64,000 nucleotides of DNA, from the NCBI GenBank assembly GCA_035573435.1, contig DATMZR010000031.1:124001-188000 (forward strand), written 5' to 3'. Below the pieces are notes generated by a model. The model worked only from the letters and a program-made list of their open reading frames with translations, did not search any database and was not told the DNA's origin. The DNA comes from Solirubrobacterales bacterium. Its GTDB lineage: Bacteria > Actinomycetota > Thermoleophilia > Solirubrobacterales > 70-9. Below, piece by piece: positions 840 to 32,992 of this stretch (positions are counted from its first letter, which is position 1; the number at the start of each line of letters is the position of its first letter). Position numbers and translations under genes: made by a program.

Positions 840-890
840 ACAGCCGGACGCGGCGCGAGAATTCGCCGGTAACCGAAGGGAGAAGGATTG

Positions 891-1391
891 ATGGAGATAG
901 CGGAGCCCGAGCGCCCCGGCGGCGGCGAAGCCGAGACGGCCACCGCCGAGCCGATGCCAGAGGTGGAGGCGGCGTTCGAGGAGATCGAGGTCGATGCCCC
1001 GCTGGTGGGGATCATCATGGGCTCGGCCAACGACAAGTCGAAGATGCAGCCTGCCGGCGGGGCCCTCCACGACGCGGGCATCCGCTACGAGGTGCGGGTG
1101 ATGAGCGCCCATCGCGATCCGGAGAAGGTGCGCGAGTACTGCCAGGCCGCGAGAATGCGGGGCCTGAAGGTGATCATCGCCGGCGCGGGGATGTCGGCCG
1201 CGTTGCCGGGGGTGGCGGCCGCCCACACCGATCTCCCCGTGGTCGGCGTCCCGCTGACGGGCAAGAGCCTCGGCGGGCTTGACGCTCTTCTCTCCGCCGT
1301 GCAGATGCCGCCCGGCGTCCCCGTTGGCTGCGTTGCAATCGACGGGGCGAAGAACGCCGGCCTGCTGGCCGCCCGCATAATCAATGCGTGA
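891..1391 (+). CDS. purE: N5-carboxyaminoimidazole ribonucleotide mutase / AIR carboxylase catalytic subunit
   Basis: This PurE-family protein (166 aa) produces CAIR in purine synthesis. Residues 1-38 are a Glu-rich extension not usual for PurE. The core then runs GIIMGSANDKSKM (usually GSxSDxxxM), the catalytic-His motif MSAHRDP (usually SAHRTP) and IAGAGMSAALPG (usually GGAAHLPG). It ends with MPPGVPVGCVAI and NAGLLAARI. The ATG at 891 is chosen over a TTG at 888 because AGAAGG lies just upstream. The stop overlaps the purB start in GTGA. No purK is adjacent, so whether this enzyme uses N5-CAIR (class I) or AIR and CO2 directly cannot be decided here. Confidence 0.92.
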   Translation: MEIAEPERPGGGEAETATAEPMPEVEAAFEEIEVDAPLVGIIMGSANDKSKMQPAGGALHDAGIRYEVRVMSAHRDPEKVREYCQAARMRGLKVIIAGAGMSAALPGVAAAHTDLPVVGVPLTGKSLGGLDALLSAVQMPPGVPVGCVAIDGAKNAGLLAARIINA

Positions 1392-2686: not shown

Positions 2687-3975
2687 GTGCCGACGAGGAT
2701 CGCTGGAGTGCCGTTGCGCGGCGACAGGGTGACGTTACGCCGCACGATCGGCTCGGGCTCGGCCTTCGCCGGACGAAGCTCCGCCTGGCCCAGCACTGTG
2801 CGCAACACCGCGCGCATCTCGAATTGGGCGAAGGCGCCGCCGATGCAGCGCCTGGTGCCGCCGCCGAAGGGAATCCAGCTGTAGGTCTCGGGTCCGCCGT
2901 CGAGAAAGCGCTCGGGCTTGAATGCGTGCGCGTCGGTGTAGACGTCTTCTCGCGTGTGCGTGAGGTAGATCGCCGGCATGACCACCGTTCCCTCGGGAAG
3001 CCTGTAGCCACCCAGCTCGGTGGCGAGCTGAAGCTTGCGTCCGACGAACGGCACGACCGGGCGCACCCGCAGCGTCTCCTCGATCACGGCGTCCAGATAC
3101 TCATGGCCCCCTTCGGCGACCTCAGCCCGCAGGCGCTCGAGTTTCTGCGGAGCCCGGAACAGGAGGTCGAAGGCCCACGCCAGCGCGGTCGCCGTGGTCT
3201 CGTGGCCGGCCATCAGCAGGGTCATCAGCTGGTCCCGCAGCTCCGTGTCGCTCATCGCCGAGCCATCCTCGAAGCGTGCCGCCACAAGCAGGGAGAGAAT
3301 GTCCTCCCGCCGCTCCAGCTCCGGGTCGGAGCGGCGCTCGGCGATCTCGGCGAGCAGGGCCTCGTCGGTGTCTGCCAGCATCTGCTCCACTCGCCGGTAG
3401 GCGGGAAGCCGACGCAGCCGCCCGATGGTCAACCCCACCGCCCTCGGCGAACGAGTGGTCGCGAGGATCGCGACGAGGTTCTCTCGCAGGGCCTGCCGCC
3501 GTTCATCGTCCTCCACCCCGAACACCGCCCGCAGGATCACCTCGAGGGTGATCCGCTGCATGCTCGGGTGAAGAGGGAACGGCTTCTGGAGCGGCCAAGA
3601 AGCGATCTCACGACGGGTCGCTTCCTCCATCACGCCCTCGTATGCGCGCATGCGCTCGCCGTGGAAGGGCGGCAGCATCAGCTTGCGGCGACGCAGATGC
3701 TCCCCTCCTTCCAAGAGGAGCAGCGAACGCTGACCCAGCACCGGCGCCAGCACCACGTTGCGACCGGGGGCGATCGTGTTCTTGCGATCGGCGGCGAACA
3801 GGCTCTTCAACGAGGGGGGATCGGAGATGAAGACGAGCTCCCCCATACGCAGCACCCGCACTGTGAATGTGCCGCCGAACCGCTGCCGGCAGCGCTCGAA
3901 GAAGGGGATCGGGCGAGCAACGACCATCGACGTCTGGAACGCCGCCGGCGCCTTTGGGCCGGGAGGAAGCGTCAT
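2674..3975 (-). CDS. Cytochrome P450
   Basis: This is a soluble P450 monooxygenase of 433 aa. The heme-thiolate loop FGGGTRRCIGG places the ligand Cys near residue 377. The I-helix motif MAGHETTATAL supplies the O2-activating Thr, the K-helix ExxR is EETLRVRP, and AFKPERFL is the PERF-type motif. I chose the ATG at 3975 (MTLPPGPKAP) because a Pro-rich hinge is usual there and a CATACT -10 lies 10 nt upstream; the open frame extends to 4167 but that part overlaps the next gene and looks non-coding. No redox partner is adjacent. The substrate cannot be inferred. The gene is antiparallel to the flanking purine genes, so it is probably not part of their function. Confidence 0.95.
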   Translation of the reverse strand: MTLPPGPKAPAAFQTSMVVARPIPFFERCRQRFGGTFTVRVLRMGELVFISDPPSLKSLFAADRKNTIAPGRNVVLAPVLGQRSLLLLEGGEHLRRRKLMLPPFHGERMRAYEGVMEEATRREIASWPLQKPFPLHPSMQRITLEVILRAVFGVEDDERRQALRENLVAILATTRSPRAVGLTIGRLRRLPAYRRVEQMLADTDEALLAEIAERRSDPELERREDILSLLVAARFEDGSAMSDTELRDQLMTLLMAGHETTATALAWAFDLLFRAPQKLERLRAEVAEGGHEYLDAVIEETLRVRPVVPFVGRKLQLATELGGYRLPEGTVVMPAIYLTHTREDVYTDAHAFKPERFLDGGPETYSWIPFGGGTRRCIGGAFAQFEMRAVLRTVLGQAELRPAKAEPEPIVRRNVTLSPRNGTPAILVGTYER

Positions 3976-4021
3976 CGCGACGCGCAGTATGCCCTTTCGC
4001 CAACGCCCGGCGCCAGGGAGC

Positions 4022-4621
4022 TCAGCCGGCCCCGAGGAACTCCACGAGCGCCTGCTTCCCCCCCGGCAGCAGCGGGTCTCCGTGAGCGAACAGCAGGCCA
4101 TCGAAGTCATGGTCGAGCAGGGACCGCAACGACTCGCCGAGGCCGCGCTTGACGCCCTCCGGGTCATCGCCGAGCAGTGAGTCGGGGACGAAACCCAGGC
4201 TGCCGTGGTTGATCAGTCCGTCCGCCAAGGACAAGAATCCGTCGCCGCGGTCGATGTGGAGGGCCGTCTCCTCAGGGCAGATCGCGCCCACCTCCAGCGC
4301 CACGATTCCGGGCGCCACCTGGTCGGAAAAGAGGAAGCCGTCGACCTTCGGGCCTCCCTCGAACTCGTGCAGGCCCGCCTCGTGACAGAGCACCGGGCAG
4401 GCGAACTCCTCGCGGAACGCGTCGCTCTGACGATAATGGTGTCGGTTCGTGAGCACGATTCGCTGCCACTCGCCTATTCCCCGGACCGAGTCGATGCCCT
4501 CTGAGGGAAGCATGGGGTCGATCAGCGTTCCGCCGTCCGCCACGTAGTACGAGCTGACCTCGATCCCGATCTTCGGATGCACGGCCTTCCAATGCCAGAG
4601 GCCTGGGCTGATCTCATTCAT
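4022..4621 (-). CDS. Metallo-beta-lactamase-fold-like protein with degenerate metal site
   Basis: This 199-aa protein resembles the MBL fold: an N-terminal strand pattern (SSYYVADGGTLIDPMLP), a region where the metal motif HxHxDH should be but reads TNRHHYRQSD, and a C-terminal FAHGDPLLPGGK where MBL enzymes have the HGD/HxxxS region. Only part of the metal-binding set is kept, so hydrolase activity is uncertain. A strong GAGGAGG Shine-Dalgarno precedes the ATG at 4621. It lies 46 bp upstream of the P450 on the same strand and the two are probably cotranscribed. It is divergent from purC across 51 bp. Confidence 0.7.
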   Translation of the reverse strand: MNEISPGLWHWKAVHPKIGIEVSSYYVADGGTLIDPMLPSEGIDSVRGIGEWQRIVLTNRHHYRQSDAFREEFACPVLCHEAGLHEFEGGPKVDGFLFSDQVAPGIVALEVGAICPEETALHIDRGDGFLSLADGLINHGSLGFVPDSLLGDDPEGVKRGLGESLRSLLDHDFDGLLFAHGDPLLPGGKQALVEFLGAG

Positions 4622-4672
4622 CGCTCTTCCTCCTCGGTTGTGCCGGAGGCGTTGTTAGCATCGGCTGGCCTT

Positions 4673-5527
4673 ATGCCGAGCGCCCTGGCCGAGCTCCAAC
4701 TTCACTCCAGCGGCAAGGTCCGCGAGATCTACGAGCTCGACGGCGACCTGTTGATGGTGGCCTCGGACCGGATTTCGGCATACGACGTGATCATGCCCAA
4801 CCCCATACCAGACAAGGGGCGCGTGCTGACGCAGATGTCCCTGTTCTGGTTCGAGAGCACAGCCGAGATCTGTCCTAACCACTTCCTCTCGCAAGAGGTG
4901 CCGGAGGAGGTGGCGGGCCGTGCGATTCGTGTACGGCGCCTGGACATGTACCCCGTCGAGTGTGTCGTGCGCGGGTACCTGTCGGGCTCAGGGTGGCGCG
5001 AGTACCAAGAGTCCGGCTCGATCTGCGGCATACAGCTGCCGTCCGGCCTGCGTGAGTCCGAACGCCTGCCGGAGCCGATCTTCACGCCCGCGACCAAGGC
5101 CGATGTCGGTGACCACGACGAGAACATCGATTTCGAGCGCGCCGCCGAGATCGTCGGCAATCGTCCCCTGATGGAGAGCTTGCGGCGGATCTCGATCGAG
5201 CTCTACCGCCATGCCTCGGTCCACGCCGAGGCGCGCGGGATCATCCTCGCCGACACGAAGTTCGAGTTCGGGGCCTCACCCGGGGCCGAGGTGGTGCTGG
5301 GCGACGAGGTCTTCACCCCCGACTCCTCCCGATTCTGGCCCGCCGACGAATACGAGCCCGGCCGGCCGCAGCGCTCGTTCGACAAGCAGTATCTGCGCGA
5401 CTGGCTGGACAAGACCGGTTGGGACCACAGCCCGCCGGCACCCGAGCTCCCCGAAGCGGTGGTCGCCAATACGCGGGCCAGGTACGTCGAGGCCCACGAG
5501 CGAATCACCGGGCGGGGCCTGGATTAG
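4673..5527 (+). CDS. purC: Phosphoribosylaminoimidazole-succinocarboxamide synthase
   Basis: SAICAR synthetase (284 aa) joins aspartate to CAIR with ATP. Visible family motifs are SSGKVREIYEL and ASDRISAYDV (ATP site), VECVVRGYLSGSGW, EPIFTPATKAD, DTKFEFG, and DEVFTPDSSRFW close to the C terminus. The ATG at 4673 gives MPSALAELQLHSSGKVREIY, the normal family N terminus; the 32 codons upstream in the same frame are antisense to the neighbouring gene. A TAGCAT element ends 11 nt before the ATG, so the mRNA may be nearly leaderless. It is separated from the other purine genes by accessory genes on both sides. Confidence 0.96.
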   Translation: MPSALAELQLHSSGKVREIYELDGDLLMVASDRISAYDVIMPNPIPDKGRVLTQMSLFWFESTAEICPNHFLSQEVPEEVAGRAIRVRRLDMYPVECVVRGYLSGSGWREYQESGSICGIQLPSGLRESERLPEPIFTPATKADVGDHDENIDFERAAEIVGNRPLMESLRRISIELYRHASVHAEARGIILADTKFEFGASPGAEVVLGDEVFTPDSSRFWPADEYEPGRPQRSFDKQYLRDWLDKTGWDHSPPAPELPEAVVANTRARYVEAHERITGRGLD

Positions 5528-5552
5528 CCGTGCCCGCGGCGGGACGACCGCG

Positions 5553-6497
5553 CTATTCCACCTCGTAGCCGAGCTTCTTCAGCATCTTCCCCCCGACCGA
5601 CTCGAACGCCGCCCGATCCTCGGCTGACATCTCGGTACGCCAGCGACCGGTCCGGCTTGCACTCGGCGGGCGGCTCACCAGCTCGTGCTGGCGAGCGCGT
5701 TCCTCGGCGGTGATCGTGCCGCCGCCCAGGGGCTTCAGCTCCCGCGCCACCTCGCGCATCCGCTCCTCGGCACGCTCGTGGTAGGAGAGCATCCTGTCGT
5801 CCCAGGGAAGGTGGACGAAGCCGGCGACCCGCCGGAGGACGGGCTCCGGATCGGCGACCAGATCCTCGTAGCGCGTCTCCATGTAGGTGCCCGGCGACAG
5901 GCGCCGCGCCCTCCGCTGGGCACGCGAGAGCTCGTCCACCCATTTGCGCGCCGCCTCTTCGACCTCGCCAGGGCCCCAGCTGACCTCGCTCAACGAGAGC
6001 GCCACGTCCCTGCCGTCGCGAATGAGGTGGATGAACCGCGCCTCGGGTAGCCCGCGCTGTATCCGCGGGGCCTTCCACGTGTATGGCGGTGACTTATCGC
6101 CCCAGCGCGGCTTGCCCTCGCGCTCGGCGTACGCCTCGTAGAAGGAACGAGCGGCATCGCCGGGCGACAAACGATCGTGGGCCTCGAGACGCCTGCGAAG
6201 CGCGTCGGCATCGAGCCCGAAATCACCCCAGCGCGGATGCGTCGTGATCAGCTCGAAGGCCCGCTCGCGCATCTCCTTGGCGGTCAGCCCCTCCTCCACC
6301 CAGCGCTCGCAATGGGAGATCAGCTTCGGCACGAAGTGCGTCTCAGGCGGGATCGTCAGCTGGGGGTGTGCGTCAAGCATCAAGCGGAGCAGGGTCGTCC
6401 CCGAGCGCGCGACGCCGACCACGAAAGGCGCGGGCTGGCGGCCGTCGGCACGGGACCGCCACCGAGACAGCGCAAGCTTCGGCGAGCGAGGCCTCAT
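5553..6497 (-). CDS. Sulfotransferase family protein
   Basis: PAPS-dependent sulfotransferase fold, 314 aa from the ATG at 6497. The 5'-phosphosulfate loop reads VGVARSGTTLLRLMLDAHP near residues 26-44. The 3'-phosphate-binding Arg/Ser region is FIHLIRDGRDVALSLSEVSWG, near residues 135-155. It fits the Sulfotransfer_1/3 group that sulfates carbohydrates or small molecules. The longer open frame (to 6761) runs antisense through the start of the next gene and is rejected. It is divergent from a second sulfotransferase across 93 bp and lies beside five glycosyltransferases, so a glycan acceptor is plausible but not shown. Confidence 0.85.
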   Translation of the reverse strand: MRPRSPKLALSRWRSRADGRQPAPFVVGVARSGTTLLRLMLDAHPQLTIPPETHFVPKLISHCERWVEEGLTAKEMRERAFELITTHPRWGDFGLDADALRRRLEAHDRLSPGDAARSFYEAYAEREGKPRWGDKSPPYTWKAPRIQRGLPEARFIHLIRDGRDVALSLSEVSWGPGEVEEAARKWVDELSRAQRRARRLSPGTYMETRYEDLVADPEPVLRRVAGFVHLPWDDRMLSYHERAEERMREVARELKPLGGGTITAEERARQHELVSRPPSASRTGRWRTEMSAEDRAAFESVGGKMLKKLGYEVE

Positions 6498-6590
6498 CAG
6501 CGGGTCTAGTCTGGCATGCAGCCTCGGCGGAGAGAGAGCGCGCGATCTGGCTCGCAGAGCGAGCATTACCCTGTAGCGGCCTTGAAGACG

Positions 6591-7397
6591 ATGAGGCCCT
6601 GGCACGCGCCGCTTGAGATCCCGGAGTGCCCCGCCGGCTGGACCACCGGTCCGCCCGACTACGTTGGGATCGGTGCGCAGCGCTGCGGCACGAGTTGGTG
6701 GTACGACGCAATGCGCAGGCATCCGGCCATCAAGCGCTCGCCGCTCGGCAAGGAGGTCCACTACTTCGACCGCTTCTGGCAGGGCGACGCGCCCGACGAC
6801 ATCGCCGGCGAGTACGCATCACTGTTCCCTCGCCCGCCGGGGCAGATCGCGGGTGAATGGACGCCCCGCTACCTGGCGTCCTTCTGGACCCCACCGATGC
6901 TGCAAAAGGCGGCACCCGAGGCCAGGCTCCTGGTCATGCTTCGCGATCCCGTCGCCCGCTATCGCTCGGCGATCGCACGGCTGCACCGGATGGCCGAGGA
7001 GCGGGGGGATCGCGTCCTGCTGGCGTCGGTCGCCGACGCGACCTGGCGTGGCTTTTACCACGAGCAGCTCCGCCACGTGTTCGACCTGTTCGGAGCCGAG
7101 CAGATCCTGGTGCTCCAGTTCGAGCGCTGCGTACAGGACCCCGTCGGTGAGATGGAGCGCACTTGGCGGTTCCTGGGGCTGGAGCCGCCGCGGAAGGTCC
7201 CCGGTCGCCTGATGCAACACAAGCAGGCCGGCCGGCCCACACCGGAGCTTGCACCCGCCGTGAGCGAGGAACTCGCTGAGCGATACCGGGAGGACGCCCG
7301 ACGACTCGCCGAGCTGTGCCCGGAGATCGACCTCTCGCTCTGGTCGAGCCTCGCCGGAGCGCGGCGCGCCGGCGCGGCGCGCGTCGGAGCCCGCTAA
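6591..7397 (+). CDS. Sulfotransferase family protein
   Basis: Second sulfotransferase, 268 aa. The PAPS loop is YVGIGAQRCGTSWWYDAMRR near residue 22. LLVMLRDPVARYRSA is the 3'-phosphate-binding stretch. KEVHYFDRFW matches the heparan-type (Sulfotransfer_1) family, where a Lys-Glu pair at this point is catalytic. The ATG at 6591 (MRPWHAPLEIPECPAGW) is preferred; the frame stays open further upstream but that part is antisense to the divergent gene. The C-terminal 15 residues are Ala/Arg-rich. A glycosyltransferase follows 17 bp downstream on the same strand, suggesting cotranscription and a role in making a sulfated glycan. Confidence 0.85.
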   Translation: MRPWHAPLEIPECPAGWTTGPPDYVGIGAQRCGTSWWYDAMRRHPAIKRSPLGKEVHYFDRFWQGDAPDDIAGEYASLFPRPPGQIAGEWTPRYLASFWTPPMLQKAAPEARLLVMLRDPVARYRSAIARLHRMAEERGDRVLLASVADATWRGFYHEQLRHVFDLFGAEQILVLQFERCVQDPVGEMERTWRFLGLEPPRKVPGRLMQHKQAGRPTPELAPAVSEELAERYREDARRLAELCPEIDLSLWSSLAGARRAGAARVGAR

Positions 7398-7414
7398 CCA
7401 AACGGTCCGGCCCC

Positions 7415-8641
7415 ATGACGCTGGTGATGACCCTCAAGGTGCGCGACGAGGAAGACGTGATCGAGGACAACCTGCGCTTCCACCGCGCGCTTGGGGTGGA
7501 CTTCTTCGTGGTGATGGACAACGGCTCCGTGGATCGGACACCCGAGATCCTCGCCCGCTATCAGGAAGCCGGGCTCGCCCACGTCTTGCGAGACGAGAGC
7601 GGTGACCTCCGAACCCTGGGCGCCGAGTGGTACACGCGAATGGGAAGGATGGCGGCCACGGAGTTCGGCGCCGACTGGGTGATCCACAACGATGCGGACG
7701 AGTTCTGGTGGCCGTTGAGCGGCAACCTCGCGGAGGCTCTGGCGGCCGTCCCGCAGCAGTTCGGAGCTGTGGTTGCCCCGCGTGCCGAGTTCGTGGGTCG
7801 CCCGGACGGCCCGGGCTCGTTCGCCGGGCGGTTGGTGGTTCGCGAGGCGCGCTCGAGCCTGCAACCCAAGGTCGCTCACCGCGCCGATCCGGAGGTGGTG
7901 GTGCTCCATCGCGGCGCCCACGACGTCGCCGCAGCGGCAAACGGGGATCTTTGGAGGGCGCTGCGGCCGCCCGGGCGAGCCGTCCATCGCAGCGTTCGCG
8001 CGCCGGACGGAGAGCCAAGCGACGACGTCGAGGACATCCGGCTCGTCTGGGCGCCAACCTGGCCGCTTCGCATCCTCCATTTCCCGTTGCGCTCTCTCGA
8101 ACAGTTCCGAAAGCGGACGGAGATCTCGCTGCGCCACGGCGGATTCCGCGACTCGGGGCGCTTTCGGCGCCTGCGACGGCACTATGAGCAGGGGCGTCTG
8201 GAGGAGCTCTACGCCGAGCTGATCTGGGACGACGCGGCGGTCGAGGAAGGGATCAAGGACGGCCAGCTCGTGCGCGATCCGCGGCTTGCCGAGCTATTGC
8301 CGCGGTGTCCCGATCCGCTTGCCGGAGGCCCGGCCGGCGCCCTGCGCGTGACTCCCAGCGAGTCCGAGCTCGAGCGCGAGCGGGCCGAGGTGGAGCTCGA
8401 CGCCATGAGGCTGATGACTCGCACGCAGCGCTTCACGATGCTGCGCCTTGACCAAGCCAGGGAACGAATCGACGAGCTGCACGAAAAGAACGACCATCTA
8501 CGCGCGAAGCTCGGCCGCACCCTCGGCAGGCGCCTCCTGAAGCTGGGCCGGCGCCGGCGAGCGCGAGATCAGCCACAGACAGACGAGCTGGGGATCGAGG
8601 GCGGCATCGAGGAGCCCGCGCGGGAGAACCAGGAGCTCTAG
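7415..8641 (+). CDS. Family 2 glycosyltransferase-like protein with C-terminal coiled coil (paralogue A)
   Basis: GT-A fold protein of 408 aa, first of five paralogues. The N terminus MTLVMTLKVRDEEDV begins the nucleotide-sugar fold; MDNGSVDRTPEIL follows, and the metal-binding DxD is DAD at residues 93-95 within HNDADEFWWP. These fit the Glyco_tranf_2_4-type families (PF13704-like). ILHFPLRSLEQF near residue 227 is conserved in all five copies. After residue 310 the protein becomes a charged helical segment that looks coiled-coil, ending in a basic stretch. The donor and acceptor are unknown. Its stop shares a CTAG with the stop of the converging paralogue B. Confidence 0.88.
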   Translation: MTLVMTLKVRDEEDVIEDNLRFHRALGVDFFVVMDNGSVDRTPEILARYQEAGLAHVLRDESGDLRTLGAEWYTRMGRMAATEFGADWVIHNDADEFWWPLSGNLAEALAAVPQQFGAVVAPRAEFVGRPDGPGSFAGRLVVREARSSLQPKVAHRADPEVVVLHRGAHDVAAAANGDLWRALRPPGRAVHRSVRAPDGEPSDDVEDIRLVWAPTWPLRILHFPLRSLEQFRKRTEISLRHGGFRDSGRFRRLRRHYEQGRLEELYAELIWDDAAVEEGIKDGQLVRDPRLAELLPRCPDPLAGGPAGALRVTPSESELERERAEVELDAMRLMTRTQRFTMLRLDQARERIDELHEKNDHLRAKLGRTLGRRLLKLGRRRRARDQPQTDELGIEGGIEEPARENQEL

Positions 8642-9462
8642 GGCGCAGCTTCCTTCACAGATAAGGCGCGAAGGAAGTCCCGCAGGCGAGTGTCTTCGAC
8701 CAAGTCGGCGCGCGCCCCCTCGGCCACCACGTTGGCGTCGTAGTGGTCGCGCAGCCGGCCCTCCTCCCAGGCTTCGTACAGTCGCCGCCACGTCCGGCCC
8801 GTGCGCTGCGGCAGCTCGCGATTTCGCCCGTAGGCCCGGCCGCCCTTGACGATCTTGTTCTCGAACTGCCCATATGTGCGCATAGGGAAGTGGAGGATCT
8901 CGATCGAGGCGTCATCCCGGCGCTCGCCGAGATCCGCGCCGTCCACTTTGTGGTTGCCCTGGGCGACGATGATCTCGGGGTCCGCGCGGTGGGCGAGCTT
9001 CGGCGGCAGCGGCTTGCCAAGCGGGTTCAGCGACACGCGCTCGCGCAGCGTCATCCGTTCCCAGAATGGGCGCCCGTCCTCCGGGCGGGGCACGAAGTTC
9101 TGACGATGGGCGACCACCAAGCCAACCCCGGCACCCAGCTGCTCGAAGACCGACTTCAGCGACCCGGCGAGCGGCCACCAGAACTCGTCGGCATCGTTGT
9201 TGATCACCCAGTCGGCGCCCTCCGTCGCAGCCAGCTGGGCCATCCTGGTCACCCAGCGGCCCTGCGAGTAGTCGTCCGCGGGCTCGTGAAGCAGCCGCAC
9301 CACCCCACGGGACTCGTACTCGCGAAGGATCTCGACGGTGGCGTCCTCGGAGCCGTTGTCGGTGACGATCACCTCGTCGACACCCTGCGCGAGATGGAAG
9401 TCGAGGTTCTCCCGAACGATGTCCTGCTCGTCGCGCACCAGCAGGGTCATGACCAGCTTCAT
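8638..9462 (-). CDS. Family 2 glycosyltransferase-like protein (paralogue B, inverted copy)
   Basis: GT-A fold protein of 274 aa. It shares the opening MKLVMTLLVRDEQDI, the TDNGSEDATVEIL segment, the DxD motif (DAD at residues 90-92) and ILHFPMRTYGQF with its four neighbours. It is the only copy on the minus strand and the only one without the long C-terminal helical tail; it ends VEDTRLRDFLRALS, the same position where paralogues D and E have LVEDTDFRDYLAACP. A TACGAA element lies 10 nt before the ATG at 9462. It diverges from paralogue C across only 57 bp, so the two may share a control region. Confidence 0.88.
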   Translation of the reverse strand: MKLVMTLLVRDEQDIVRENLDFHLAQGVDEVIVTDNGSEDATVEILREYESRGVVRLLHEPADDYSQGRWVTRMAQLAATEGADWVINNDADEFWWPLAGSLKSVFEQLGAGVGLVVAHRQNFVPRPEDGRPFWERMTLRERVSLNPLGKPLPPKLAHRADPEIIVAQGNHKVDGADLGERRDDASIEILHFPMRTYGQFENKIVKGGRAYGRNRELPQRTGRTWRRLYEAWEEGRLRDHYDANVVAEGARADLVEDTRLRDFLRALSVKEAAP

Positions 9463-9519
9463 GGGGCGACGATTCGTAGCAGGTTGGCACCCGCCCGCAC
9501 GGGCCTAGAATGCCCGTCC

Positions 9520-10800
9520 TTGCCTGGCGGTCCATCCTCAGCCCACCGACCACGCCTGGTGATGGCGCTCAAGGTTCGAGACGAAGGCGACGTCCTCGAG
9601 GCCAACTTTCGCTTCCACCACGCGCTGGGTGTCGACCACTTCGTGGTCACCGACAACGGATCCACCGACGAAACGCCGGAGATCCTCCGCCGCTACGCGG
9701 ACGCGGGGCTTGCCCACGTGATCGACGAGCCCGGGACGGACTACAAGGAACGAGGCTCGGAATGGCTGACGCGGATGGCACGCCTGGCCGCAACGGATCT
9801 CGACGCGGATTGGGTGATCCATACGGACGCGGACGAGTTCTGGTTGCCGGCCGAGGGCACGCTGGCGGATGCGCTGCACGCGATCGCCGGGCGGTACGGC
9901 GTCGTCGTCGCGCCACGCACCGAGTTCGTGGGCCTCCCGGATGCCCCGGGGTCCTTTGCCGAGCGACTCACGGTGCGGGAGTCGCGAGCCCGACTCCAGC
10001 CCAAGGTCGCGCACAGGGCAGTACCCGAAGTGGTCGTTCTCGACCGCGGTGGGCACGACGTGGCGGTGGCCGGCCCCAGCGGAGACCTGGCGGAGACGGT
10101 TCGCCCGCCTGGTCGACCCGTTCATCGCACGGTTCGTGATCCGAACGGGGGTAACGCTGCGCCGCCCGAACAGGACGCCAGGCTCGTCTGGGCGCCCAGC
10201 TGGCCGCTGCGAATACTCCACTTCCCGGTGCGCTCCTACGAGCAGTTCAGGCGCCGTACCGAGATCGCGATCTTCGAGGGCAGGTTTCCGGACTGGGGGC
10301 GCTTCAAGCGCCTTCGCGAAACTTACGAGGAGGGTCGATTCGAGGAGCTCTTCGCGGACTTGGTCCTGGACGAGGCGGCCGTCGAGGAGGGCATTCGGGC
10401 CGGCCGACTCGTGCGCGACGAGCGCCTCGCCCGCCTGATGCCGCTGTGCCCCGATCCGCTTGAAGGCGGGACGGCCGGGAGCGTGGGCGCAGACCTTCCA
10501 GCGGATGAGGTGCAACGAGAGCTGGCTGAGCTCGAGTTCGACGCGATGCAGCTCCTCGCCCGTACCGAGCGCTGGCTGGTCGTTCAGCGCGACCGCGCCC
10601 GCGAGCGCGTCGACACCCTCGAGTCGCAGCGCGAGAGGGCCGTGCGGCAGCGGGACACCGCGCGCGGAAGGGCCGAGCGACTCCGCAGCAGGCTGACGAA
10701 GAAGCGCGAGCGCCTGACCGCGCTGCGTCGCGAGCTGCGTGCGGAGCGCGCCCGCCCATGGGCCAGGCTGCGGCAAGCGGTCCGGCGGCTGCGGAGCTAG
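9520..10800 (+). CDS. Family 2 glycosyltransferase-like protein with C-terminal coiled coil (paralogue C)
   Basis: GT-A fold protein of about 426 aa with VTDNGSTDETPEIL, the DxD motif in HTDADEFWLP and ILHFPVRSYEQF. The last 130 residues are rich in Arg, Glu and Leu and look like a coiled coil with a basic end. The start is uncertain. The ATG at 9562 gives MALKVRDEGDV, missing the LVM that starts the other copies. The TTG at 9520, 14 codons earlier, lies exactly 8 nt after a TAGAAT -10 element and is preferred. The open frame further upstream is only antisense of paralogue B. It is closest to paralogue A (both have SFAxRLxVRE and ARLVWAP/IRLVWAP segments). Confidence 0.86.
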   Translation: MPGGPSSAHRPRLVMALKVRDEGDVLEANFRFHHALGVDHFVVTDNGSTDETPEILRRYADAGLAHVIDEPGTDYKERGSEWLTRMARLAATDLDADWVIHTDADEFWLPAEGTLADALHAIAGRYGVVVAPRTEFVGLPDAPGSFAERLTVRESRARLQPKVAHRAVPEVVVLDRGGHDVAVAGPSGDLAETVRPPGRPVHRTVRDPNGGNAAPPEQDARLVWAPSWPLRILHFPVRSYEQFRRRTEIAIFEGRFPDWGRFKRLRETYEEGRFEELFADLVLDEAAVEEGIRAGRLVRDERLARLMPLCPDPLEGGTAGSVGADLPADEVQRELAELEFDAMQLLARTERWLVVQRDRARERVDTLESQRERAVRQRDTARGRAERLRSRLTKKRERLTALRRELRAERARPWARLRQAVRRLRS

Positions 10801-10837
10801 TGGGCAGTCCCGAAACGACCCATTAGCCTGATCGCCG

Positions 10838-12049
10838 ATGCGGTTGGCGATGACATTGCTCGTCCGCGACGGTGCGGACCTGATCGAGGACAACCTGCGC
10901 TTCCACCGCGCGCAGGGGGTTGACCTGTTCGTGGTCGGCGACAACGGATCCACTGACGGCTCGCTGGACATCCTCGAGCGCTACGAACGAGCGGGGCTGA
11001 TCGCTTTCGAGCGGATACCGGGGGCTGCACGTGAAGCCCAGGGAGAGGGCCGCACGAAGCTGGCGCGGCGCGCCTTCGAGCTGGGCGCTGACTGGGTGTT
11101 CCACAACGACCAGGACGAGTTCTGGTGGCCGGCCGGCGGCGGCGACCTCAAGGAGGCGCTCGCCGCCATCCCGGAGCGCTTCGGCTTGGTGCTCGCGCCG
11201 AGGACCGAGTTCGTCGGCAGGCCCGGTGACGGCTTCTACGCCGACCGGCTGACGATCCGCGAGGCCCGCTTCCGGCGCCCACCGAAGACCGCGCATCGTG
11301 CCCACCCACAGGTGATGATCTCCCAGCCGCACCCCACGCACATCTGGGTCGACTACGGGGCCCCGCCACGTCAGGGGCTGGTGGGCAGACCGGTTCGCCG
11401 CACTCAGCCCGACCACGCCGACGAGGCGGAGCTCGAGCTCCTCATCGCCCCCACGTTCCCGCTCGCCGTGCGTCACTTCCCGCTTCGCTCCTTCGGGCAG
11501 TACAGGCACATGGTCGAGCTCGCGCTCGCCAATGACCAGCTCCGGGAGGACAACAGCGTGCGAAGAGCCTTCGAGGAGGGCCGGCTCGAGGAGGTCTACT
11601 CGGATCTGATCCTCGACGATGAGGCTGTGAAGCGCGGGCTGACGGAGGGCTGGCTGGTCGAGGACACGGACTTTCGCGATTACCTCGCGGCCTGCCCACA
11701 GTTGCTCGATGGAGGTGGAACACCGCCTCCCGGCGCACGCGCGTGGTCAGAGGAACGGAGAAGCAAGGAGCTCGCCGATCTCGAGGGCGACGCGATGTAC
11801 GCGCTCAGCCGCTATCTCCAGGCCAACGCCTACAAGCTTCAGACGCGGCACCATGAGGGAGCAGAGCGCCGCGCCGCCAAGCGTCAGCTCGAGCGACGCC
11901 TGCAACGGATGCGCAAGCGCCTCAGGCATCAGCGCGAGCGCCGGCGCAGGATCGAATCGAGCCGCTGGTGGCGCGTTCGACCACGGCTGCCGAGGGCGCT
12001 CTTCGGGCGACGCGCGGGGGGCACCCGCCGCCGCAGTAGCGACCGCTAG
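10838..12049 (+). CDS. Family 2 glycosyltransferase-like protein with C-terminal coiled coil (paralogue D)
   Basis: GT-A fold protein of 403 aa starting MRLAMTLLVRDGADL. GDNGSTDGSLDIL and the DxD equivalent DQD (residues 91-93) are present. VRHFPLRSFGQY corresponds to the shared ILHFPxRS motif. LVEDTDFRDYLAACP near residue 275 is nearly identical to paralogue E, so D and E are the closest pair. The C terminus is strongly basic (many Arg). The ATG at 10838 follows TAGCCT by exactly 8 nt with no Shine-Dalgarno, suggesting a leaderless mRNA with its own promoter. Substrate unknown. Confidence 0.88.
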   Translation: MRLAMTLLVRDGADLIEDNLRFHRAQGVDLFVVGDNGSTDGSLDILERYERAGLIAFERIPGAAREAQGEGRTKLARRAFELGADWVFHNDQDEFWWPAGGGDLKEALAAIPERFGLVLAPRTEFVGRPGDGFYADRLTIREARFRRPPKTAHRAHPQVMISQPHPTHIWVDYGAPPRQGLVGRPVRRTQPDHADEAELELLIAPTFPLAVRHFPLRSFGQYRHMVELALANDQLREDNSVRRAFEEGRLEEVYSDLILDDEAVKRGLTEGWLVEDTDFRDYLAACPQLLDGGGTPPPGARAWSEERRSKELADLEGDAMYALSRYLQANAYKLQTRHHEGAERRAAKRQLERRLQRMRKRLRHQRERRRRIESSRWWRVRPRLPRALFGRRAGGTRRRSSDR

Positions 12050-12060
12050 CCTCCGCCGTA

Positions 12061-13227
12061 ATGCGGCTGGCGATGACGCTGCTCGTGCGGGACGAGGCCG
12101 ACATCATCGAGGCCAACCTCCGCTACCACCGAGCCCAGGGAGTGGACTTCTTCGTAGTGGGCGACAACGGCTCTGAGGACGGCACCCTCGAGATCCTCGA
12201 GCGTTACGAGCAGGCCGGCCTGGTGGAGCTGGAGCGTTTACCCGGCACAGTCAACGAGGCCTGGTCAGAGGGCAGGACCAGGCTCGCCCGGCGCACCCAC
12301 GAGCTCGGCGCCGACTGGGTGATCCACAACGACGGCGACGAGTTCTGGTGGCCGGTCACCGGCGACCTGAAGCAGACCCTGGTGTCGATCCCCGAGCGCT
12401 TCGGAATGGTGATCGCGCCACGGACGGAGTTCGTCGCGCGCCCCGGAGACGCCTCATTCGCGGACCGGCTGACGTTTCGCGAAGCCAGATGTCTGCGCCC
12501 ACCCAAGGCGGCTCACCGGACGCATCCACGGATCGTGCTCGACCACCCTCACCCCACCCGGATCTGGATCGAGAACGCGTCCGCCATCCCACTCGAAGGC
12601 CGGCCGGGACTGACGATCACCGACACCAGGCACCCGCTGCCGACGGAGGAGCTCGTCTTCGCTTCGACCTTCCCGATCCGGGTCTTGCATTTCCCGGTTC
12701 GAAGCCGCGTGCAATACCGCCGTCGGGTCGAGCTGGCGGAGCTAGCCGGGATGCTGGAGTCGGATTGGCGAGCAGGATTGCTGGCCGCCCACGAGAGCGG
12801 GCGCCTGGACCAGGTCTACGACGAGCTGGCGCTGTCCGACCAGGAGCTCGAGCGGGAGATGAGCGAAGGCCTGTTGGTCGAGGACACGGACTTTCGCGAC
12901 TACCTCGCCGCATGCCCCGATCCCCTCGACGGCGGCGGCGCGCCCGCCGGGTCGCGGGACTGGCCCGATGACAGGCGGCACCGCGAGCTCGCCGAGCTCG
13001 AGCTGGACGCCATGTACGCGCTCACCAAGTACGTTCGGCGCCGCGGCGGCAGCGCTCGCCGGGGTCGGTTCCGGGAGCTGAAGGAGAGCGAGCTCAAGCT
13101 ACGGCGCCGGCTGCGCCGACGCGAGCGCCGCCTCGAGAGCATTCAGACGAGCCGTTGGTGGCGCCTTCGACCGCGGCTGCCGGGACGGCCTCGCCGCGGC
13201 GGCCTCGCCCGCCGTGACGCCGACTAA
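12061..13227 (+). CDS. Family 2 glycosyltransferase-like protein with C-terminal coiled coil (paralogue E)
   Basis: GT-A fold protein of 388 aa starting MRLAMTLLVRDEADI, with GDNGSEDGTLEIL, DGD at residues 91-93 and VLHFPVRSRVQY. It shares LVEDTDFRDYLAACP and a WWRLRPRLP-type C-terminal segment with paralogue D (WWRVRPRLP), evidence of a recent tandem duplication. The ATG again lies 8 nt after a TAGCCT element at 12047-12052, just after the stop of paralogue D. purS begins 10 bp beyond its stop, so read-through transcription into the purine genes is possible. Confidence 0.88.
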   Translation: MRLAMTLLVRDEADIIEANLRYHRAQGVDFFVVGDNGSEDGTLEILERYEQAGLVELERLPGTVNEAWSEGRTRLARRTHELGADWVIHNDGDEFWWPVTGDLKQTLVSIPERFGMVIAPRTEFVARPGDASFADRLTFREARCLRPPKAAHRTHPRIVLDHPHPTRIWIENASAIPLEGRPGLTITDTRHPLPTEELVFASTFPIRVLHFPVRSRVQYRRRVELAELAGMLESDWRAGLLAAHESGRLDQVYDELALSDQELEREMSEGLLVEDTDFRDYLAACPDPLDGGGAPAGSRDWPDDRRHRELAELELDAMYALTKYVRRRGGSARRGRFRELKESELKLRRRLRRRERRLESIQTSRWWRLRPRLPGRPRRGGLARRDAD

Positions 13228-13237
13228 CGTTGGGGAC

Positions 13238-13465
13238 GTGAGGGCCAAGGTTCTGATCCGTCCCAAGCGCGGCATCCTGGATCCCCAGGGGAAGGCGATC
13301 GAGCGTGCTCTCCCCACGCTTGGCTTCGACGGCGTCTCGAACGTGCGTGTGGGACGCCTGGTGGAGCTCGAAGCCGACGATCCCGACCGCCTCGCCGAGC
13401 TCTGCGAGAAGCTGCTGGCCAACCCTCTGATCGAGGACTACGAAATTGAAGTGGACGGCAGGTGA
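13238..13465 (+). CDS. purS: Phosphoribosylformylglycinamidine synthase subunit PurS
   Basis: Small FGAM synthase subunit (75 aa) that bridges PurL and PurQ in the three-protein enzyme. VRAKVLIRPKRGILDPQGKA is the family N terminus, with VRVGRLVELE and LLANPLIEDYEIE in the second half. The GTG at 13238 fits this N terminus; a GTG at 13214 in the same frame would add 8 residues and overlap the preceding gene. The stop TGA overlaps the purQ ATG (TGATG). Together with purQ and purL this shows the Bacillus/actinobacterial PurSQL type rather than the large single-chain PurL. Confidence 0.93.
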   Translation: MRAKVLIRPKRGILDPQGKAIERALPTLGFDGVSNVRVGRLVELEADDPDRLAELCEKLLANPLIEDYEIEVDGR

Positions 13466-14151
13466 TGTTCGGCGTCGTTCAATTCCCGGGGTCCTGCGAC
13501 GAGCGCGACGCGCTCCTCGCCTGCCGCCAGGTTGGCGACGCGCGCCTGGTCTGGCACCAGGAGACGGACCTCGACGACGTGGACGTGGTGGTCGTGCCCG
13601 GCGGCTTCTCGTACGGCGACTACCTGCGGGCCGGGGCGCTGGCGCGCTTCTCGCCCGCGATGGAGGCGGTGGCCGAGCATGCCGAGGCCGGCAAGCCGGT
13701 GCTCGGGATCTGCAACGGCTTTCAGGTCCTCTGCGAGGCCGGCCTGCTTCCCGGGGCGCTCTTGCCGAACGACTCGCTGAGGTTCGTCTGCCGGCAGGTC
13801 GAGCTGGTGGTGGAGAGCGCGGAGACGCCGTTCACGCAGGGATGCCAACCCGGGGAACGGCTCTCGATCCCGGTCAAGCACGAGTCGGGCCGCTACTACG
13901 CGCCGGCCGAGCAGCTCGAGGAGCTCGAGGCGCGGGGCGGAATCGTCCTGCGCTATGCGGCGGGCCAGAACCCGAACGGCTCGGCCCGCGAGATCGCCGC
14001 CGTCGTCAACGAGGGCGGCAATGTGATGGGGCTGATGCCGCATCCGGAACACGCAGTTGATCCCCTGACCGGATCCACGGACGGATTGCGCATCTTCGCC
14101 TCGCTTGCCGCGCCGGCCGCCAAGTCCGCGCCCGCCGCGCTCAGCGGGTAG
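13465..14151 (+). CDS. purQ: Phosphoribosylformylglycinamidine synthase glutaminase subunit PurQ
   Basis: Class I glutamine amidotransferase subunit (228 aa) that supplies ammonia to PurL. It starts MFGVVQFPGSCDERDAL. The nucleophile Cys sits in GKPVLGICNGFQVL near residue 84, and the His-Glu pair in MPHPEHAVDPL near residue 195. GGFSYGDYLRAGALA is also typical. The ATG at 13465 overlaps the purS stop by one base; a GTG at 13462 is an alternative. The last 20 residues are Ala-rich. The 3' end overlaps the converging gene by 11 bp. purL lies 4.2 kb further on instead of adjacent. Confidence 0.96.
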   Translation: MFGVVQFPGSCDERDALLACRQVGDARLVWHQETDLDDVDVVVVPGGFSYGDYLRAGALARFSPAMEAVAEHAEAGKPVLGICNGFQVLCEAGLLPGALLPNDSLRFVCRQVELVVESAETPFTQGCQPGERLSIPVKHESGRYYAPAEQLEELEARGGIVLRYAAGQNPNGSAREIAAVVNEGGNVMGLMPHPEHAVDPLTGSTDGLRIFASLAAPAAKSAPAALSG

Positions 14152-15058
14152 CCGACAGCTGCTTGGCGTCCTCGAGCAGCACCGGCGCCTTGATCGTCGC
14201 CAGCTCGCCGCCGCGCTCCGGATCGATGAGCTGGAGGTAGAAGCGATCGTCGCGCTGGATCAGGTCGAAGACCTGCTCGTTGATCTGCGCCAGCTCTTCG
14301 CCAAGCGCCTCGCGATAGCGGCGCACCGGATGGATGAACTTCCGGAACCTGCCGACAAGGCCCTTGCGAGGCAGCCTCGCGGCAAGCCGGCCGCGCACCG
14401 TGGCGTTGAGCCTGTCCTCCGCTGCAGCTCGCCACAATCTGCCGCCAGCCGTGCGGCGGAAGCCGCCGCCGTGGTGATAGACGAGATCCTCGTAGACGCC
14501 GAACTGGAGGGGATGGGGGTTGACCTTGTTCGTGCGCAGCATCGGGTACCAGTCGATGCCGCGCTCGGAAAGCAGGCGATAAAGGTTGCCTCCCACATCC
14601 GTGACCTCCTTGCCCTGGGGGTTGATCCAGGTAGCCCCGCGTCGCCAGTCGCCGGGCAGCTCGCGCCACAGTCCCGCTCTCATCACGCAAAATGACGGAT
14701 GAGGCTGGGGGTCGCCGTTGTTCTCGTCCCGCCGCACCGCGACGATCGGATAGCGCTCCAGCTTCTCGCGTAGGAAGGGGACGATGGGGGCGACCGGGAA
14801 GGCGTCGCCGTCGATGAACATGATCATCTCCTCCGGGCGGGCCGCTTGCGCCACGATGTCGCCCAGCAGGGTGAGCTTCAGCTCGTGCTGCTTGATCGGC
14901 ACGTCGGTGCTGTAGAAGAACTTGTGCGCCTGGTCACGCATCTCGGCGTCGAGCCAGGCGTAGACCTTGAAGTCCTCCTCGACGTTGCGCTCCATGTATC
15001 GAAGCTGGATATCGATCCAGCGGTCGTAGCGCCAGTGGACGGTCGCGATGTGGATCAC
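14141..15058 (-). CDS. Putative glycosyltransferase-like protein, GT-A type
   Basis: Protein of 305 aa from a GTG at 15058 (VIHIATVHWRYDRWIDIQ). The N-terminal half looks like a Rossmann-like GT-A domain: a FKVYAWLD strand, MIMFIDGDAFPVAPI with a DGD metal motif near residue 95, and FCVMRAGLWREL. The C-terminal third is helical and charged with no recognisable motif. A TACGTT element lies 7 nt before the GTG, which favours this start over a TTG at 15076. It is not similar to the five family-2 copies nearby but may act on the same product. It converges on purQ with an 11-bp overlap. Confidence 0.6.
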   Translation of the reverse strand: MIHIATVHWRYDRWIDIQLRYMERNVEEDFKVYAWLDAEMRDQAHKFFYSTDVPIKQHELKLTLLGDIVAQAARPEEMIMFIDGDAFPVAPIVPFLREKLERYPIVAVRRDENNGDPQPHPSFCVMRAGLWRELPGDWRRGATWINPQGKEVTDVGGNLYRLLSERGIDWYPMLRTNKVNPHPLQFGVYEDLVYHHGGGFRRTAGGRLWRAAAEDRLNATVRGRLAARLPRKGLVGRFRKFIHPVRRYREALGEELAQINEQVFDLIQRDDRFYLQLIDPERGGELATIKAPVLLEDAKQLSATR

Positions 15059-15298
15059 CGCGGGTAACGTAAACAAGATGGTTTGGGCAGGCGGGCACGA
15101 CAGCCGCGATTCGTGCCTGAGATAGCCCGCTAGACCCCGCTTGCCACTGGCGCTTACTGGCGCAACGCTCGCTCAGGCCCGAGGACTCGATAGACGGCCT
15201 GATCGCTTTGCATGGAAAGCGCAATAGCGCCCCTCGGGCGCGTAGTTCTCATCAAGAAGCACCTTCGCGGCCTGGCGAAGAAACAACAGCAGGCCGGG
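15059..15298. other. Intergenic region without a recognised gene
   Basis: About 240 bp between two minus-strand genes. Apart from the TACGTT -10 candidate at 15066-15071 for the downstream gene, I see no ORF with family features, no strong hairpin with a T run, and no repeat. Confidence 0.4.
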
Positions 15299-17329: not shown

Positions 17330-17456
17330 CGAAATGCCCGAAAGTTGCGGGCAGGCCAAGGCCGAGGGGCGGCTGTGAACGCCGCAGACATCCCCTGACC
17401 GGCGTAGAGACCGCGTGCGGGCTTGGCCCGGCTCCCCTGTCGGGCCGGAGCTTTTA
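17330..17456. ncRNA. Candidate structured RNA, strand undecided
   Basis: Three hairpins in a row fill an intergenic gap. The first pairs TGCCCG with CGGGCA around 17333-17352. The second pairs AGGGG with CCCCT, enclosing CGGC/GCCG, at about 17370-17399. The third pairs GGCCCG (17425-17430) with CGGGCC (17441-17446) and is followed by GGAGCTTTT. On the plus strand the last looks like a terminator; on the minus strand the RNA would end at the terminator at 17257-17279. I could not match it to a known family. Chance folding in GC-rich DNA is a real alternative. Confidence 0.25.
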
Positions 17457-17542
17457 TGGCGCATACACTGGCGCATCTATGGTGCATCGCTCCCCTAAAC
17501 CGCTTGGATAAGCCAATTTCGCGCAATCCGCTCCAGAGCAAG

Positions 17543-18283
17543 ATGCTTCCCTTCGGCGCTCGGACGCCCGCGGAGCTGCGCGACAAGGGAATCGTCGTTG
17601 TTCTGGGGATGCACCGCAGCGGCACCTCGGCGATCGCCGGCATGCTGGCGGACCACGGCATCGAGCTCGGCCCCGTTTCGCAGCAGAACCGCTTCAACCC
17701 GCGCGGCAACCGTGAGATCCGCGAGCTCAACAGGCTCCACGACCGGATCCTGGAGCGAAGCGGCGGCGCTTGGTGGGACCCCCCTGCGCGCATAAGCCCC
17801 GGCCGGGGCGACTACCGCCGGCGCAACGAGATCCTTCGGTCGATCCCCGGCGAGACGATCGGAATCAAGGATCCACGGCTGTTGCTCGTGCTCGACCTGT
17901 GGCGTGACCTGGAGCCGAGGCCAATCGGCGTGATCCGAAATCCCGTGGCCGTGCGCGATTCGCTTCAACGGCGCGCTCATGAGCGTGCCAGGCGCCACCC
18001 GCAGCTCTCCGCGGCGGCATGGGACGAGCTCTGGCTGACCTACAACCGAGCGCTGCTGGCCGAGCACCGGCGGCGTCCCTTCCCGGTGATCGACTTCGAC
18101 CGGCACGCCGATCTAGACGCCCAGATGCGGGGAGCGCTCGTCTTCCACGGGCTGGAGCTGGCAACCGAATCCGACTTCTTCGACCGCGATCTTGCCGGCT
18201 CGCCCGCCGACGACTGGCGGTCCCGGGCCTCCGGCGAGACGCTGGAGCTCTGGGACACACTCGCCGCCCTCGCCGCGCGATAG
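17543..18283 (+). CDS. Sulfotransferase-like P-loop protein
   Basis: Protein of 246 aa. The nucleotide loop VVLGMHRSGTSAIAGMLADHG lies near residues 19-40 and matches the sulfotransferase-family variant GMHRSGTS. IGVIRNPVAVRDSL near residue 130 is the 3'-phosphate region, and IKDPRLLLVLDLW precedes it. The ATG at 17543 is chosen because it leaves a normal short lead into the P-loop. An ATG at 17456, 29 codons earlier and preceded by GGAG, is possible. It lies just upstream of purL, but nothing links it to purines; it is the third sulfotransferase in the island. Confidence 0.75.
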   Translation: MLPFGARTPAELRDKGIVVVLGMHRSGTSAIAGMLADHGIELGPVSQQNRFNPRGNREIRELNRLHDRILERSGGAWWDPPARISPGRGDYRRRNEILRSIPGETIGIKDPRLLLVLDLWRDLEPRPIGVIRNPVAVRDSLQRRAHERARRHPQLSAAAWDELWLTYNRALLAEHRRRPFPVIDFDRHADLDAQMRGALVFHGLELATESDFFDRDLAGSPADDWRSRASGETLELWDTLAALAAR

Positions 18284-25490: not shown

Positions 25491-25569
25491 CCGAGGCCAT
25501 TGCTACCCTGCGGTGGCAGGCGGACCTGCCTGCCTCGCCAGCTCGATCTCTCACGCAGAGAAGGCCTAC

Positions 25570-27654: not shown

Positions 27655-27656
27655 GC

Positions 27657-32982: not shown

Positions 32983-32992
32983 CCCCAGCCGC

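What the first reader, a model, noticed from the sequence alone, without database searches (positions are those of the whole stretch)
7415..13227. Five paralogous family-2 glycosyltransferases in one array, one inverted
Genes A, C, D and E run on the plus strand and B on the minus strand between A and C. All share the (M)xLxMTLxVRD start, DNGSxD, a DxD in a (H/T)(N)DxDEFW context and an LHFPxRS motif. D and E also share LVEDTDFRDYLAACP. Four carry long Arg/Glu coiled-coil tails; B lacks it. Local expansion plus a tail suggests a family of related transferases that may assemble or act on different steps of one polymer.
Basis: partly seen in the sequence, partly recalled or inferred. Interest (0 to 1): 0.55.

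Follow-up and report, generated by a model that had tools for sequence, protein, structure and literature searches.

The report
Sugar-transferase array inside purine gene cluster
In a little-known actinobacterium, five related sugar-attaching enzymes sit in the middle of the genes for making purines, next to sulfate-attaching and sulfate-removing enzymes, and related genera carry a different set of sugar enzymes in the same gene cluster, which hints at a variable locus for a sulfated sugar.

Summary
Five intact PF13704 glycosyltransferase genes (A, C, D, E on +, B on -) fill 7415-13227, and the genome search finds no others. A/C (62% identical) and D/E (59%) are duplicate pairs in one tailed clade; B is tail-less and of uncertain kinship. 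In D the tail is modelled as one 70-residue helix; its catalytic domain best matches GalS1, a GT92 galactan synthase (Z 17.3).

The array lies between purC and purS, with C-D-E running into purS at gaps of 10-37 bases. Beside it are a tyrosylprotein-sulfotransferase-like gene (ST1), a heparan-3-O-sulfotransferase-like gene (ST2), three Cys-type sulfatases and, further on, a sulfate importer. All 4 genomes of the genus have array genes there. In sister genera the same purine cluster holds GT4 glycosyltransferases with up to seven ST1 domains. Family-wide, 40 of 45 ST1-like matches lie within 10 kb of a purine gene.

Best reading: a lineage-variable sulfated-glycan cassette housed in a housekeeping operon. 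Donor sugar, acceptor and product are undetermined: the purine residence and the sulfation genes are solid, the polymer is inference.

The parts
7415..8641 (+). GT_A, PF13704 glycosyltransferase with C-terminal tail
8638..9462 (-). GT_B, tail-less PF13704 glycosyltransferase, convergent with A (4-base overlap)
9559..10800 (+). GT_C, PF13704 glycosyltransferase with tail (62% identical to A over 358 residues); start GTG 9559 or ATG 9562
10838..12049 (+). GT_D, PF13704 glycosyltransferase; model with GT-A domain 1-290 and a single helix 305-374
12061..13227 (+). GT_E, PF13704 glycosyltransferase with tail, 59% identical to D; ends 10 bases before purS
5553..6566 (-). ST1, sulfotransferase (PF13469), closest solved relatives tyrosylprotein sulfotransferases
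6516..7397 (+). ST2, sulfotransferase, closest solved relatives heparan sulfate 3-O-sulfotransferases; ends 17 bases before A
4577..5527 (+). purC (SAICAR synthetase), left flank of the array
13238..13465 (+). purS, right flank (first possible start 13214)
13462..14151 (+). purQ
15..2686 (+). purD (15-839), purE (888-1391), purB (1388-2686)
2674..4101 (-). cytochrome P450, between purB and purC as in several sister genera
14141..15076 (-). possible further GT-A-like protein (FIDGDAFP motif, judged by eye; no Pfam, NCBIfam or PDB match), conserved in the genus
17456..18283 (+). possible third sulfotransferase-like gene (weak PF13469, E 0.018, below cut-off)
18330..20528 (+). purL
20734..22332 (+). 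sulfatase with CCPSR motif
22434..23939 (+). sulfatase with CCPDR motif
23964..25490 (+). sulfatase with CCPSR motif
25520..29282 (+). purF, purN, purH
32515..36633 (.). Rrf2 regulator (+) and sulfate ABC importer cysA-cysW-cysT-sbp (-); neighbourhood, probably not part of the cassette

Best explanation
The array is the glycosyltransferase part of a lineage-variable cassette for a sulfated glycan, housed inside the purine cluster of an actinobacterium of Solirubrobacterales type. Shown: five PF13704 glycosyltransferases, A/C and D/E as duplicate pairs; a conserved place in the genus; sulfotransferases beside them; resident ST1-type sulfotransferases with GT4 glycosyltransferases at the purine cluster of sister genera. 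Inferred: each GT-A enzyme adds one sugar with inversion (GT92-like, perhaps galactose) to a membrane-held acceptor; the helical tail, basic in C, D and E and ending in a Trp/Arg/Pro-rich stretch in the D/E line, holds the enzymes at the membrane or to each other; ST2, and perhaps ST1, sulfate the product with PAPS, and the sulfatases trim or recycle it. C, D and E are probably co-transcribed with purS and purQ.
For: PF13704 hits. Best structural match of D is GalS1, GT92: Z 17.3, 228 residues, 3.6 A, 18% identity; a second GalS1 entry 15.4; best other rows 14.7 and 13.9 (model pLDDT 89.6). B, C, E exceed the PF01697 GT92 cut-off. ST2 nearest HS 3-O-sulfotransferase, E 2.5e-15. ST1 type keeps RSGTT, ET and RDG in all 30 aligned sequences. 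Three Cys-type sulfatases, a formylglycine-generating-enzyme family match and an APS kinase in the genome. Gaps C-D 37, D-E 11, E-purS 10. Array genes next to purS in 4 of 4 genus genomes, next to the purC-ST1-ST2 side in the 3 where that side is assembled. ST1-like matches within 10 kb of a purine gene: 40 of 45, in 12 of 50 family genomes. GT4 genes, methyltransferases and a flippase-family gene at the purine cluster of sister genera. 8 of 76 other PF13704 loci also hold a sulfotransferase by my two profiles. A Gaiella-type array lies beside an ABC-2 permease and ATPase (L049 by Pfam; L028, L038, L046, L052 by eye).
Against: No flippase, exporter or polymerase was found among the genes scanned between purD and purH; flippase-family matches are elsewhere in the genome. 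ST1 is nearest to protein-sulfating enzymes. Sulfatases are frequent elsewhere in this genome too (10 matches with the three here). An importer of this kind, judged by eye, also follows purH in G012, which has no ST1-like match, so it belongs to the neighbourhood rather than to the cassette. 38 of 50 family genomes have no ST1-like match at E 1e-25 and 45 of 50 no array gene at E 1e-12. 68 of 76 other PF13704 loci showed no sulfotransferase (many loci are short). Unrelated genes also sit between purine genes in this order. A's tail is neutral. No product is known.
Confidence: 0.5

Rival explanations
1. Genome parking: the purine cluster of this family tolerates insertions, and the array and sulfotransferases are independent passengers without a joint product.
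For: Other genes lie between pur genes in sister genomes, e.g. a LysR-like gene (by eye, G028) and a P450. B and ST1 are antisense to the purine genes. 38 of 50 family genomes lack an ST1-like match.
Against: ST1-like genes are at the purine cluster in all 6 genera that have them, and 40 of 45 matches lie there; GT and ST genes recur together with two unrelated GT families, and ST genes are expanded.
Confidence: 0.25
2. Protein or peptide modification: ST1 sulfates tyrosines and the glycosyltransferases decorate the same secreted protein.
For: ST1 model matches tyrosylprotein sulfotransferases at Z 23.1 (246 residues, 4.5 A, 24% identity) against 13.8 for HS 3-O-sulfotransferases; profile E 9.8e-30. 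The best PDB sequence match of the GT profile is GmaR, E 1.5e-8.
Against: The polyketide-type sulfotransferases 4gox and 4gbm are close behind (Z 20.7, 20.3), so the fold does not fix the substrate; ST2 is of the carbohydrate type; no substrate protein was sought.
Confidence: 0.15
3. A glycosylated and sulfated small molecule or glycolipid, made with the P450 beside purB.
For: P450, sulfotransferases and glycosyltransferases in one stretch.
Against: The P450 stands between purB and purC also in six genomes without ST1 or array (G005, G010, G012, G014, G018, G033), so it is not tied to them; no scaffold-forming enzyme was seen among the genes scanned.
Confidence: 0.08

Closest known systems
Pfam PF13704 (Glyco_tranf_2_4) bacterial glycosyltransferases
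   Same: All five proteins match well above the cut-off.
   Different: In most of the 80 loci kept the homologue is one gene without such a tail; some are fused to longer proteins (cyanobacteria, Rhodobacteraceae), and two Nocardioidaceae copies have a tail of their own.
GT92 (plant GalS1 beta-1,4-galactan synthase)
   Same: Best structural match over the catalytic domain; B, C, E over the PF01697 cut-off.
   Different: 18% identity; A and D give no PF01697 match at E 0.001; activity unknown.
Synechan (xss) sulfated exopolysaccharide cluster of Synechocystis (PMC8205485, passages read)
   Same: Several glycosyltransferases with two sulfotransferases in one cluster.
   Different: xss has flippase, polymerase and co-polymerase genes and lies on a megaplasmid; here the genes are threaded through purine genes and no such gene was seen. 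The authors state (2021) that to their knowledge sulfotransferase genes had not been found in other bacterial exopolysaccharide clusters.
WbdD-type coiled-coil ruler (PMC6286764, passages read)
   Same: Enzyme domain followed by a long helix.
   Different: WbdD is a terminating kinase/methyltransferase with a coiled coil of about 200 A in trimers; here the helix is about 70 residues, the tails differ between paralogues, and oligomerisation is untested.
Tandem PF13704 arrays in Gaiella and kin (L028, L038, L046, L049, L052)
   Same: Local arrays of the same family, several with shorter C-terminal extensions.
   Different: A separate expansion (14-row clade, 100/99) beside ABC-2 exporter-like genes, with no purine gene found in these loci.
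Tyrosylprotein sulfotransferases (TPST)
   Same: ST1 fold, RSGTT and ET motifs.
   Different: Bacterial, in arrays of up to seven domains, with glycosyltransferases; substrate unknown.

Membership tests
PF13704 Glyco_tranf_2_4 | score over Pfam's curated cut-off | tested here: met
   5 of 5 proteins, 50.7-62.3 bits against 27.5
GT92 | PF01697 score over cut-off | tested here: inconclusive
   3 of 5 (B 27.0, C 27.2, E 28.2 bits; cut-off 23); A and D no match at E 0.001
GT92 | fold of a solved GT92 enzyme | tested here: met
   GalS1 8d3t Z 17.3, 228 residues, top row; D only; GalS1 is not among Foldseek's own first 50
GT92 | inverting galactosyl transfer (recalled) | not testable with these tools
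   needs enzyme assay
GT2 as in PF00535 | PF00535 score over cut-off | tested here: inconclusive
   B 37.5 and C 27.1 bits (cut-off 23.3); A, D, E no match at E 0.001
TPST (for ST1) | TPST fold and the Glu of the ET motif (its catalytic role recalled) | tested here: met
   Z 23.1; E75 and T76 invariant in 30 sequences and aligned to ET of TPST1
TPST (for ST1) | sulfation of protein tyrosine | not testable with these tools
   needs enzyme assay
Carbohydrate (HS 3-O) sulfotransferase (for ST2) | sequence relation to 3-OST | tested here: met
   1t8t E 2.5e-15 over residues 47-223
Formylglycine sulfatase (three proteins) | C-x-P-x-R motif (recalled) and a modifying enzyme in the genome | tested here: met
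   CCPSR, CCPDR, CCPSR; PF03781 match on C19
Complete Wzx/Wzy or ABC polysaccharide locus | flippase or exporter in the cluster | tested here: not met
   none among the genes scanned between purD and purH; flippase-family matches elsewhere in the genome
Complete Wzx/Wzy or ABC polysaccharide locus | polymerase | not tested
   no polymerase family was sought in the genome
WbdD-type ruler | long helix after the enzyme domain | tested here: met
   helix 305-374 in D
WbdD-type ruler | oligomeric coiled coil that sets chain length | not testable with these tools
   single-chain prediction only; heptad score weak for D

The most novel reading that the evidence does not exclude
The purine cluster of this bacterial family is the anchor of a swappable sulfated-glycan locus, as galF-gnd or dexB-aliA anchor known surface-antigen loci (recalled): resident TPST-like sulfotransferases stay, while the glycosyltransferase set is exchanged between unrelated families (PF13704 in one genus, GT4 in others, both in genus g6), with expression tied to purine synthesis. 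It would be a sulfated-polysaccharide locus of Actinomycetota.
Probability: 0.35. Interest if true: 0.75.

Novelty: new variant of a known kind. Interest (0 to 1): 0.55.

Why it matters
Sulfated polysaccharides are said to be scarcely known in bacteria other than cyanobacteria (PMC8205485, passages; the listing also shows Pontiella, PMC7356697, of which only title and start of abstract were seen). A recurrent cassette of sulfotransferases, sulfatases and exchangeable glycosyltransferases inside a housekeeping operon of an actinobacterial family would point to such polymers in that phylum, offer a set of bacterial TPST-like enzymes to test, and raise the question why purine synthesis and glycan genes share a transcript.

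Tried and rejected
Recent duplication as the source of all five: not supported for B (best tree), though not rejected either (p-AU 0.259). Tail as a proven coiled coil: plain heptad scores are not convincing for D. Literature for a purine-cluster, sulfotransferase or Thermoleophilia precedent: the searches listed no title or abstract start that describes such a locus, and one search found 0 papers with both Thermoleophilia and sulfotransferase; open-access library only, listings only. The searches served WbdD, PF13704, GmaR, GT92 and bacterial TPST. Passages were read of two papers only, PMC6286764 and PMC8205485. Foldseek alone ranked SunS, ThuS, ColGalT1 and TarS first for D; GalS1 came top only after realignment. 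Tie of ST1 to purine genes outside the family: of 201 order genomes, 16 have an ST1-like match at E 1e-50, 12 of them in the family and 4 outside (in which at most 10 candidates a genome were scored); no purine gene was found in the stretches read around those 4, and two lie near pdxS/pdxT-like genes, named by eye. Promoter scan: one match upstream of C (9484-9511), 0.5 expected. Rows dropped: the tree used 97 of 111 profile hits plus the five window proteins, cut to 310 residues (duplicates of re-fetched contigs and short pieces left out); alignment A2 used 37 of 39 listed outside references plus five; A4 used 30 chosen ST1-type proteins. The gene caller is home-made and merged or missed some genes (for instance in L038).
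Full report
What is there. Between 7415 and 13227 five intact genes encode PF13704 glycosyltransferases, A, C, D, E on the plus strand and B on the minus strand. Searches of the whole genome (2.58 Mb, 97% complete) with D and with a profile of all five find these five and no more. A and C are 62% identical over 358 residues, D and E 59%. The DxD motif and its context are kept in all five; in an alignment of 42 proteins the invariant positions include H23, D29, D91, D93, F95, W96, H153, H165, H213 and R217 of D. That all five are active is inference from this.

Phylogeny. In a tree of 102 rows, A, C, D, E, seven tailed copies of three sister genomes and one copy of genus g6 form one group of 12 (100/99). 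Within it A stands outside a group of C and two sister copies (100/90), and D and E each pair with a different sister copy (97/63 and 98/84), so the duplications predate the species. B groups with the minus-strand copies of two sister genomes (100/100) and lies outside the tailed group; joining them costs 18 log units but is not rejected (p-AU 0.259). A second expansion is seen in Gaiella and kin (14 rows, 100/99; five copies in L038). In L049 a permease of ABC-2 type and an ATPase follow the array (Pfam); similar genes are seen by eye in the other four loci.

Tail and structure. Of 11 tailed-clade sequences aligned, 10 carry a tail of 78-99 residues: a largely conserved segment (consensus RELAEL..DAM), a variable Arg-rich stretch, and in the D/E line an S-(R/L/W)-W-W-R-(V/L/M)-R-P-R end. 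The eleventh (L027) breaks frame before the tail, and the tail match continues in another frame. The model of D (pLDDT 89.6) has a GT-A domain and one helix of 70 residues, 305-374. The realigned structural comparison puts GalS1 (GT92) first at Z 17.3 over 228 residues and again at 15.4; the best other rows are 14.7 (rmsd 13.1) and 13.9. That the tail binds membranes or partners is inference from charge (not in A, which is neutral), shape and the WbdD precedent (PMC6286764, passages).

Setting. The genes to the left are purD, purE, purB, a P450, a small ORF and purC; to the right purS, purQ, purL, purF, purN and purH. purQ has one match per genome at E 1e-40 in 49 of 50 family genomes, so this is the housekeeping cluster. 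C-D, D-E and E-purS gaps are 37, 11 and 10 bases, and purS overlaps purQ. Between purC and A lie ST1 (minus) and ST2 (plus); between purL and purF lie three sulfatases with CCPSR, CCPDR and CCPSR. After purH come phzF, ligD, an Rrf2 regulator and a sulfate importer. The genome has an APS kinase, a formylglycine-generating-enzyme family match, 13 PF13469 match rows and 10 sulfatase matches.

Sulfotransferases. ST2 is nearest to heparan sulfate 3-O-sulfotransferases (E 2.5e-15). The ST1 type is nearest to tyrosylprotein sulfotransferases by profile (E 9.8e-30) and by model (Z 23.1; polyketide-type 20.7; heparan group 13.8).

Relatives. In the genus (the other three genomes are 72-84% complete), 4 of 4 have array genes next to purS. 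In G001 the order is purC, ST1, ST2, B, an A/C-type gene, two D/E-type genes, purS. G002 is split over contigs: one has purC-ST1-ST2 and a piece of B, another a D-type gene next to purS; an E-type copy follows purL. G003 shows, on a contig that begins inside the array, an A-type end, B, a C-type gene in two frames and purS, with a D/E-type copy before purL; its purC side and ST1 are not seen. Genus g6 (G008) has purB-purC-A-type at a contig end and, on another contig, a GT4-type gene, ST1 and purL. The other 45 of 50 family genomes have no array gene at E 1e-12. In g2, g5 and g7 the stretch between purQ and purL holds ST1-type genes and GT4-type glycosyltransferases (PF00534 in the one tested, the others by BLAST to it; in G009 and G015 over two contigs), in g2 also methyltransferases and, in G004, a flippase-family gene and a further sulfotransferase. 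Of 45 ST1-like matches in 12 of 50 genomes, 40 lie within 10 kb of a purine gene on the same contig, 2 are elsewhere (G006) and 3 are on contigs without a purine gene found (G016, G017). The copies are tandem duplicates, some are halves of double-domain proteins, and two pieces in G009 lie at contig ends and may be one gene, so the 45 are not independent; by genus it is 6 of 6.

Reading. The recurrence of sulfotransferases with glycosyltransferases of two unrelated families in one housekeeping cluster points to a locus with one theme, and the carbohydrate-type ST2, the sulfatases and the exporter-linked arrays of Gaiella make a sulfated glycan the most likely product (0.5). The TPST likeness of ST1 keeps a protein substrate open (0.15), and a tolerant insertion site without joint function is the main rival (0.25). 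Why the purine cluster is the host is unknown; co-expression with purS is likely from the gene spacing, and a link through adenine-based PAPS is speculation.

Taxonomy. 

Noticed in passing
2674-4101: A cytochrome P450 stands between purB and purC here and in sister genera (53-63% identical), six of them genomes without array and ST1; it may have its own tie to the purine cluster.
   Followed up: partly
L146 and L147 (G004, G022): Islands of seven TPST-like sulfotransferase domains, including a 615-residue double-domain protein, with GT4-type glycosyltransferases between purQ and purL.
   Followed up: partly
L155, L156: Single ST1-like genes outside the family lie within a few kb of pdxS/pdxT-like genes (named by eye from the translations), in two of four cases.
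   Followed up: no
16457-17128: A CAP-superfamily (PF00188) protein lies between purQ and purL.
   Followed up: no
14141-15076: A minus-strand protein with a DxD-like motif, conserved in the genus, matches no Pfam, NCBIfam or PDB family.
   Followed up: partly
9484-9511: The one sigma-70-like match in 4400-14200 lies between the divergent B and C genes; 0.5 expected by chance.
   Followed up: no
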